The notes below the pieces were generated by a model. It ran no database searches, had not been told where the DNA came from, and saw only the letters and a program-made list of their open reading frames with translations. The position numbers and the translations under genes were made by a program. 64,000 bases of DNA. Origin: Gemmiger sp. An194 (GTDB lineage Bacteria > Bacillota > Clostridia > Oscillospirales > Ruminococcaceae). Each line of letters starts with the position of its first letter. Within the stretch, counting starts at the first letter, position 1. The stretch is from the NCBI RefSeq assembly GCF_002160145.1, contig NZ_NFKA01000017.1:1-64000 (forward strand), read 5' to 3'. Below, in pieces: positions 2 to 1,045 of the stretch.

Positions 2-77
<76 letters not shown>

Positions 78-110: not shown

Positions 111-248
111 TTGCACTTCCCCCCTTCGGGGGCGGCTTCACCGTTCGCGCTGTTAGCGCTCCGGTTCAGCTCGCAGGGCCTCTCGGGCTAAACAACATGC
201 CACCGGCATGTTGTTCTTAACGCCCTCGTCTAGAAGTGCACCACAAAG

Positions 249-281
249 AGGTGAGCATTGAAAGGTGCTCGCTTTTCTTTT
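249..281 (+). terminator. Terminator-like hairpin after repeat unit 1
   Basis: Stem GAGCA/TGCTC, extended by wobble pairs, with an eight-base loop and a GCTTTTCTTTT tail. The same element recurs 172 bases later, so each of the first two units carries its own terminator. Confidence 0.7.
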
Positions 282-420
282 GCTGCACTTCCCCCCTGCG
301 GGGGCGGCTTCACCGTTCGCGCCGATGGCGCTCCGGTTCAGCTCGCAGGGCCTCTCGGGCTAAACAACATGCCACCGGCATGTTGTTCTTAACGCCCTCG
401 TCTAGAAGTGCACCACAAAG

Positions 421-453
421 AGGTGAGCATTGAAAGGTGCTCGCTTTTCTTTT
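421..453 (+). terminator. Terminator-like hairpin after repeat unit 2
   Basis: Identical in sequence to the hairpin at 249-281: GAGCA/TGCTC stem followed by GCTTTTCTTTT. The third unit lacks it. Confidence 0.7.
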
Positions 454-647
454 GGTCCACTTCCCCTCTGCGAGGGCGGCTTCACCGTTCGCGCCGATGG
501 CGCTCCGGTTCAGCTGGCAGGGACTCTCAGGCTAAAAAACATGCCGCTGGCATGTTTTTCTTAACACCTTCGTCTAGAAGTGTACCACAAAATGGGAAAC
601 GTAAACGAAACAGGCAGTTGCGTTCTCCCGGTGCCATACATATAAAT

Positions 648-721: not shown

Positions 722-1045
722 TTACTCTTCGATGGAAACGCCCAATTTTTCGGCAATCTCGTTCAGCTTCATGCCGGATTTCTGGGCTTTGGAGACCAGA
801 GACTTGATCTGCTGTGCTTTGGTTTTGCGGCGCACGCGCTTTTTCGGTGTGAGCAGATCCTGTTTACGGGCCTGCAGCTTGCGGATCTTCTCATTGATCG
901 AGGCAATTTTGGCGTCGAATTTTTCCACGGCTTCGGCCTTTTTCGCCTCTACATCCTGAATCGAATCATTGAGCTCGGCGATTTGCAGATCCAGATCATT
1001 GGCGATCTGCTCAGAGGTGCGGCGTACTCGCTTTTGTTCAGACAT
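722..1045 (-). CDS. Small basic coiled-coil protein with helix-turn-helix-like tail
   Basis: 107 residues. I do not recognise a named family. Residues about 10-65 are a charged heptad-like helix rich in Glu, Lys and Ala, a likely coiled coil that would dimerise. It is preceded by KRVRRTSEQ and followed by a very basic patch, KKRVRRKTKAQQ (about 68-80). The C-terminus, MKLNEIAEKLGVSIEE, looks like the first helices of a helix-turn-helix. Dimerising coil plus basic C-terminal domain is the general plan of H-NS-like nucleoid proteins, but that is an analogy and not a homology call. The start is fixed by AAGGAG nine bases upstream. About 290 AT-rich bases upstream (1046-1335) hold no other gene and probably its promoter. 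Confidence 0.8.
   Translation of the reverse strand: MSEQKRVRRTSEQIANDLDLQIAELNDSIQDVEAKKAEAVEKFDAKIASINEKIRKLQARKQDLLTPKKRVRRKTKAQQIKSLVSKAQKSGMKLNEIAEKLGVSIEE

What the first reader, a model, noticed from the sequence alone, without database searches (positions are those of the whole stretch)
112..584. Tandem array of tRNA-acceptor-capped structured units behind tRNA-Lys
Three 129-nt units with an exact 172-nt period start and end with copies of the tRNA-Lys acceptor stem and CCA, but the tRNA body is replaced by an unrelated hairpin-rich insert. Three internal hairpins show compensatory changes between copies (C-G to T-A, T-A to C-G, C-G to A-T), so the RNA fold seems to be kept by selection. 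Two units are followed by their own terminator. The ends may recruit tRNA-processing enzymes such as RNase P, RNase Z or CCA-handling proteins. I know of no described family of this form.
Basis: partly seen in the sequence, partly recalled or inferred. Interest (0 to 1): 0.78.

Follow-up and report, generated by a model that had tools for sequence, protein, structure and literature searches.

The report
Gene-end-copying repeats behind tRNA genes
Behind a lysine tRNA gene of a gut bacterium stand three copies of a short, folded, non-coding element that carries a copy of the tRNA's own 3' end; it belongs to a large, previously uncatalogued Clostridia family that resembles E. coli's 'tRNA-linked repeats' and also sits behind protein genes, so it looks like a passenger added to gene ends rather than a tRNA-like machine.

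Summary
In detail: three units, 172-nt period, each ending in a copy of the tRNA-Lys 3' end (GAAGTGCACCA), with real compensatory changes. The wider alignment strengthens it (96% of cells paired, 30 of 41 pairs with double changes). The 'tRNA-acceptor' interpretation does not hold. The 5' 'acceptor strand' is better read as the reverse complement of the gene's 3' end. The same 61-nt core occurs across Clostridia behind at least 11 tRNA isotypes, usually in reverse orientation, and behind protein genes (rpsI, tpiA, infB), typically flanked by a copy of that gene's 3' end (57 of 89 cores against 12 of 267 controls). At tpiA, two species carry the element plus a 23-nt gene-end copy directly after the stop codon, while ten congeners have an empty site. 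This is the architecture of E. coli tRNA-linked repeats (TLRs: tyrT, rrB), a known kind; there is no Rfam match and no clear sequence homology here. Most likely it is a non-coding, probably mobile element added behind gene ends and multiplied in tandem, transcribed by terminator read-through. How it inserts and what its RNA does are unknown.

The parts
2..77 (+). tRNA-Lys(CTT), host gene whose 3' end (X = GAAGTGCACCA) is copied
   Evidence: ARAGORN and Rfam RF00005, 71.4 bits
78..111 (+). T1, terminator of the tRNA; together with the tRNA 3' end and the following X' it folds into one long hairpin
   Evidence: sequence; fold of 63-123, z -9.6
112..120 (+). X' of unit 1: reverse complement of the tRNA 3' end (TGCACTTCC)
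   Evidence: inverted match at +35, shuffle p about 0.015
112..243 (+). unit 1: X', hairpin P2, hairpin P3, core, X
   Evidence: model R1 match 166 bits (this sequence is in the model)
170..230 (+). core of unit 1 (CTCGCA..CTCTC, long hairpin, TTAACGCCCTCGTC), the family-wide conserved part
   Evidence: model R2, 90.6 bits; pair counts
233..243 (+). X copy 1, GAAGTGCACCA
244..283 (+). terminator T2 (stem 247-276)
   Evidence: extended hairpin z -5.5
284..415 (+). unit 2 (core 342-402, X 405-415)
416..455 (+). terminator T3 (stem 419-448)
   Evidence: extended hairpin z -4.8
456..587 (+). unit 3, diverged last copy (core 514-574, X 577-587 GAAGTGTACCA), no terminator after it

Best explanation
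The array is a Clostridia counterpart of E. coli tRNA-linked repeats. A short non-coding element with a palindromic core was added directly behind the 3' end of a gene (here tRNA-Lys at the end of an rRNA operon). Its flank carries a duplicate of the gene's last bases, so the gene stays intact. The unit X-terminator-X'-body-X then multiplied in tandem by recombination or repeated insertion. Shown by sequence: the architecture, the gene-end copies behind many genes, the inverted copies, an occupied versus empty site, and strongly conserved stems. Inferred: that the element moves; that an enzyme not yet identified, or strand-switching at the terminator hairpin, makes the copies; and that the units are transcribed by read-through of T1, as E. 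coli RrA/B/F are. The RNA may act as an sRNA or as a reserve terminator stack, or may do nothing.
For: Gene-end copies flank 57 of 89 cores against 12 of 267 control places. Hosts include tRNAs for Ala, Arg, Gln, His, Leu, Lys, Pro, Ser, Thr, Tyr, Val, and rpsI, tpiA and infB. Inverted copies X' at p<=0.01 in 19 of 27 loci. tpiA: element plus 23-nt duplication in two species, ten congeners empty. Same order X-X'-hairpin-X in E. coli tyrT; the TLR definition is in PMC8144298. Core pairs 98.4% formed, 11 of 17 with double changes. Core found in 48/397, 59/394 and 30/391 genomes of family, order and class, but in a phylum-wide draw only in two genomes of the window's own family.
Against: No significant sequence homology with E. 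coli TLRs (R2 best E 0.18). The window's X is only 11 nt inside the tRNA, shorter than the 18-19 bp of E. coli TLRs. About a third of the cores examined lack a detectable gene-end copy, and some (G155, G309, G092, G677) are dispersed intergenic repeats. No mobilising enzyme was found. At the tpiA site a different insert with an 82-nt gene-end copy occurs in other species, so the copying process is not specific to this core.
Confidence: 0.72

Rival explanations
1. [quoted passage not shown] coli RrA/B/F between the dual terminators of rrn operons; the fold is kept for protein or RNA binding.
For: Covariation in all helices of the full unit; position after 5S-tRNA-Lys and between terminators; precedent in PMC8144298.
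Against: The core lies antisense to the tRNA in 42 of 53 cases. Few wobble pairs: G-T 46 and A-C 27 of about 1629 cells in full units, 15 and 8 in A6, 9 and 6 in A7, so the folded strand is not clearly marked. No promoter was found in the array.
Confidence: 0.25
2. Relic of site-specific integration: gene-end direct repeats are att cores of very small integrative elements, repeatedly inserted at tRNA 3' ends.
For: In the reverse-orientation type, X mostly runs 17-24 nt from the T-loop to CCA, the usual att core region of tRNA-targeting integrases (general knowledge); tandem accretion with partial last copies.
Against: Each element would need a different att core for each tRNA or protein gene; copies behind rpsI, tpiA and infB; no integrase in the units; X length changes with element orientation and can reach 82 nt.
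Confidence: 0.15
3. tRNA-acceptor-capped RNA that recruits RNase P, RNase Z or CCA-adding enzyme.
For: X' and X can pair into an acceptor-like 7-8 bp helix with CCA, and both change together when the host acceptor changes (GCACTTC, GCGCTTC, GCACCTTC, GCACTCTC).
Against: The same caps copy protein-gene ends with stop codons and a recombinase gene end; X' includes the complement of CCA in many units and pairs equally well with the preceding gene end across the terminator; no T, D or anticodon arms.
Confidence: 0.06
4. Plain tandem duplication of the tRNA terminator region with palindrome-correcting mutation; no element and no selection.
For: Long near-perfect palindromes and few wobble pairs; terminators are often copied together with X.
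Against: A conserved, homologous 61-nt core at many places across the class, in both orientations and behind unrelated genes, cannot arise from independent local duplications.
Confidence: 0.06

Closest known systems
E. coli tRNA-linked repeats (TLRs), type case tyrT/tyrV 178-bp repeats (rttR/tpr)
   Same: Tandem units behind a tRNA gene, period 172 against 178 bp, each ending with a copy of the tRNA 3' end; X' inverted copy (22 nt, few mismatches) then a hairpin then X at +157; 1-5 copies per locus (PMC8144298).
   Different: No significant sequence match; E. coli X is 19 nt, here 11 nt in the window; units carry clear intrinsic terminators; the Clostridia family also sits behind protein genes.
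E. coli RrA, RrB, RrF sRNAs (TLRs between dual rrn terminators)
   Same: End of an rRNA operon, between tandem terminators, copy of the upstream gene end (rrfB: 13-nt match inside 5S, 18 bp in the paper).
   Different: Upstream gene is tRNA-Lys, not 5S; rrB has no inverted copy X'; expression here is untested.
Rfam RF00391 (RtT RNA; accession named from memory)
   Same: Covers the E. coli tyrT repeat RNA (own knowledge).
   Different: No match to any Rfam family except tRNA at gathering threshold, nor a relevant one at E up to 10.
REP / RAYT-type palindromic repeats
   Same: Short imperfect palindromes, many intergenic copies.
   Different: Copies the neighbouring gene end; three genomes with many cores (G309, G092, G540) have no Y1 transposase hit.

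Membership tests
tRNA-linked repeats (TLRs) | lies directly downstream of a tRNA or rRNA gene | tested here: met
   tRNA-Lys at 2-77, 5S upstream in relatives
tRNA-linked repeats (TLRs) | 3' end of the unit identical to the 3' end of the upstream gene (18-19 bp in E. coli) | tested here: met
   11 nt of the tRNA (15 with the following CAAA) in the window; mostly 17-24 nt in the reverse-orientation type. Shorter in the window than in E. coli.
tRNA-linked repeats (TLRs) | 1-5 copies per locus in tandem | tested here: met
   3 copies here and at C47; 1 to 5 (last one partial) in relatives
tRNA-linked repeats (TLRs) | sequence homology with E. coli TLRs | tested here: inconclusive
   R2 on the tyrT locus: best E 0.18, 9.2 bits, in the equivalent place and orientation
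tRNA-linked repeats (TLRs) | transcribed with the upstream operon | not testable with these tools
   no RNA data
RF00391 RtT | covariance-model match | tested here: not met
   cmscan
tRNA or tmRNA | tRNA fold recognised by ARAGORN or RF00005 | tested here: not met
   only the real tRNAs are found
REP elements mobilised by RAYT | Y1 transposase in the same genome | tested here: not met
   absent in G309, G092 and G540, which carry many cores

The most novel reading that the evidence does not exclude
A Clostridia-wide family of non-coding mobile elements inserts directly behind gene ends (tRNA and protein genes) and each time acquires both a direct and an inverted copy of the host gene's 3' end, by a mechanism unlike known transposition, for example terminator-hairpin self-priming or target-copying synthesis; E. 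coli TLRs would be the same process in another phylum.
Probability: 0.4. Interest if true: 0.82.

Novelty: new variant of a known kind. Interest (0 to 1): 0.62.

Why it matters
TLRs have been known since 1978 in E. coli with no known origin and, until recently, no function. A large second family in Clostridia, with covarying structure, inverted gene-end copies, protein-gene hosts and a clean occupied/empty site comparison, makes the question of how gene-end copies are made directly testable. It also warns that 'tRNA-like' caps on a repeat need not mean tRNA-like function.

Tried and rejected
Rfam at gathering and permissive thresholds: nothing but tRNA, rRNA and chance matches. Y1 transposase as mobiliser: absent in some core-rich genomes. 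Direct homology of the core with E. coli tyrT: suggestive, not significant. Strand choice by wobble pairs: weak bias, not decisive. Promoter inside the array: none. Arrays behind other tRNAs of this genome: only tRNA-Arg(ACG), with a different body and reversed core; the tRNA-Ala repeat proved to be a duplicated tRNA gene. Paper searches for the Clostridia family found nothing. The class-level loci have a tRNA close by in 8 of 11, six of the 11 with flanking direct repeats of score 66 or more.

Full report
What is there. The window starts at a contig end with tRNA-Lys(CTT) at 2-77, followed by three units with a 172-nt period. Each unit begins with the reverse complement of the tRNA 3' end and ends with a direct copy of it. 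A terminator follows the tRNA and units 1 and 2 (for the latter two). The same genome has a second three-unit array and a truncated unit behind two other tRNA-Lys genes, all at contig ends; a fourth tRNA-Lys in a Glu-Lys-Asn cluster has none. In relatives the upstream sequence is 5S rRNA, so these are probably ends of rRNA operons.

Structure. Thirty distinct units from the genome and its relatives were collected. A model of the full unit (R1) and one of the 61-nt core (R2) were built. On the core alignment, made by MAFFT and not fitted to a structure, 98.4% of cells pair, 11 of 17 pairs have double changes, and no shuffle reaches this. On the 43 distinct full units fitted to R1, 96.3% pair and 30 of 41 pairs have double changes (such an alignment leans towards its structure). 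The fold is real. Which strand matters is not clear: wobble pairs are few and G-T exceeds A-C only mildly.

The caps. In many units the complement of CCA (TGG) is included in whole or part, which a tRNA 5' acceptor strand would not have. In every genus examined the caps follow the local host gene: GCACTTC, GCGCTTC, GCACCTTC and GCACTCTC behind the respective tRNA-Lys, and GATGGTGCACCA behind a recombinase gene with the same end.

The family. R2 finds the core in 48 of 397 genomes of the family, 59 of 394 of the order and 30 of 391 of the class (the last at E up to 1e-4); in a phylum-wide draw of 398 it is found only in two genomes of the window's own family. The draws overlap in part. Of 53 tRNA-linked cores, 42 lie on the strand opposite to the tRNA and mostly have X of 17-24 nt, from the T-loop to CCA; 11 lie on the same strand (10 of them tRNA-Lys) with X of 13-15 nt. 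Direct repeats flank 57 of 89 cores against 12 of 267 control places. Inverted copies are significant in 19 of 27 loci. The core also follows rpsI, tpiA and infB, with the coding end and stop codon copied.

Insertion. At tpiA, G477 and G595 have the element directly after the stop codon, followed by a 23-nt copy of the gene end; ten congeners have the plain junction. In G755 and G758 a different insert stands there with an 82-85 nt gene-end copy, so that G755 shows four gene ends with a 222-bp period. Gene-end copying is therefore broader than this core.

Comparison with the known. E. coli tRNA-linked repeats are defined by an 18-19 bp copy of the upstream tRNA or rRNA 3' end and occur as 22 copies in ten loci (PMC8144298). 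I read the tyrT locus directly: 19-nt X, a 22-nt inverted copy with few mismatches, a hairpin, and X again at +157. The rrfB repeat has X but no X'. Sequence homology with the Clostridia core is not shown (E 0.18). I therefore file the array as a new family of the TLR kind, by architecture and not by descent.

Function and mechanism. Shown: architecture, fold, host-matched ends, an occupied versus empty site. Inferred: mobility, the copying mechanism, read-through transcription. For the window's array, sitting after an rRNA-operon tRNA with stacked terminators, an RNA product like RrA/B/F or a reserve-terminator role is possible. The reversed orientation in most loci argues against one fixed RNA function for the family.

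Noticed in passing
L107 1-320, L108 1-130, L032 480-640, L120 1-110: Another insert (GGTGCCCCGGAGGTGAGCGCC...CGCAACCGGATGA) sits between the first 20 nt of a tRNA-Lys copy or its terminator and a 17-nt copy of the tRNA-Lys 3' end in several relatives: a second TLR-like body at the same gene.
   Followed up: partly
L314, L315, L320, L321: In G755 and G758 a 140-200 bp GC-rich insert behind tpiA is followed by an 82-85 nt copy of the gene end, repeated with a 222-bp period in G755.
   Followed up: partly
L033, L113, L119, L020, L137, L139: Ends of recombinase genes, apparently serine recombinases of integrated elements (family not confirmed by Pfam), abut truncated tRNA-Lys genes or the tRNA-Lys 3' end next to these arrays; tRNA-Lys seems to be an integration hot spot.
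   Followed up: no
L236-L240, L241-L247: Dispersed multi-copy intergenic repeats with the same core but no gene-end copy (AAGGGGACGCCCTCTCTTGCAGGGCGTCCCCT + core), many at contig ends in G309.
   Followed up: partly
window 722-1045, minus strand: Small ORF (107 aa, weak Pfam MerR-DNA-bind match) whose relatives also follow the array in L109 and L026, so this junction is conserved in the genus.
   Followed up: no
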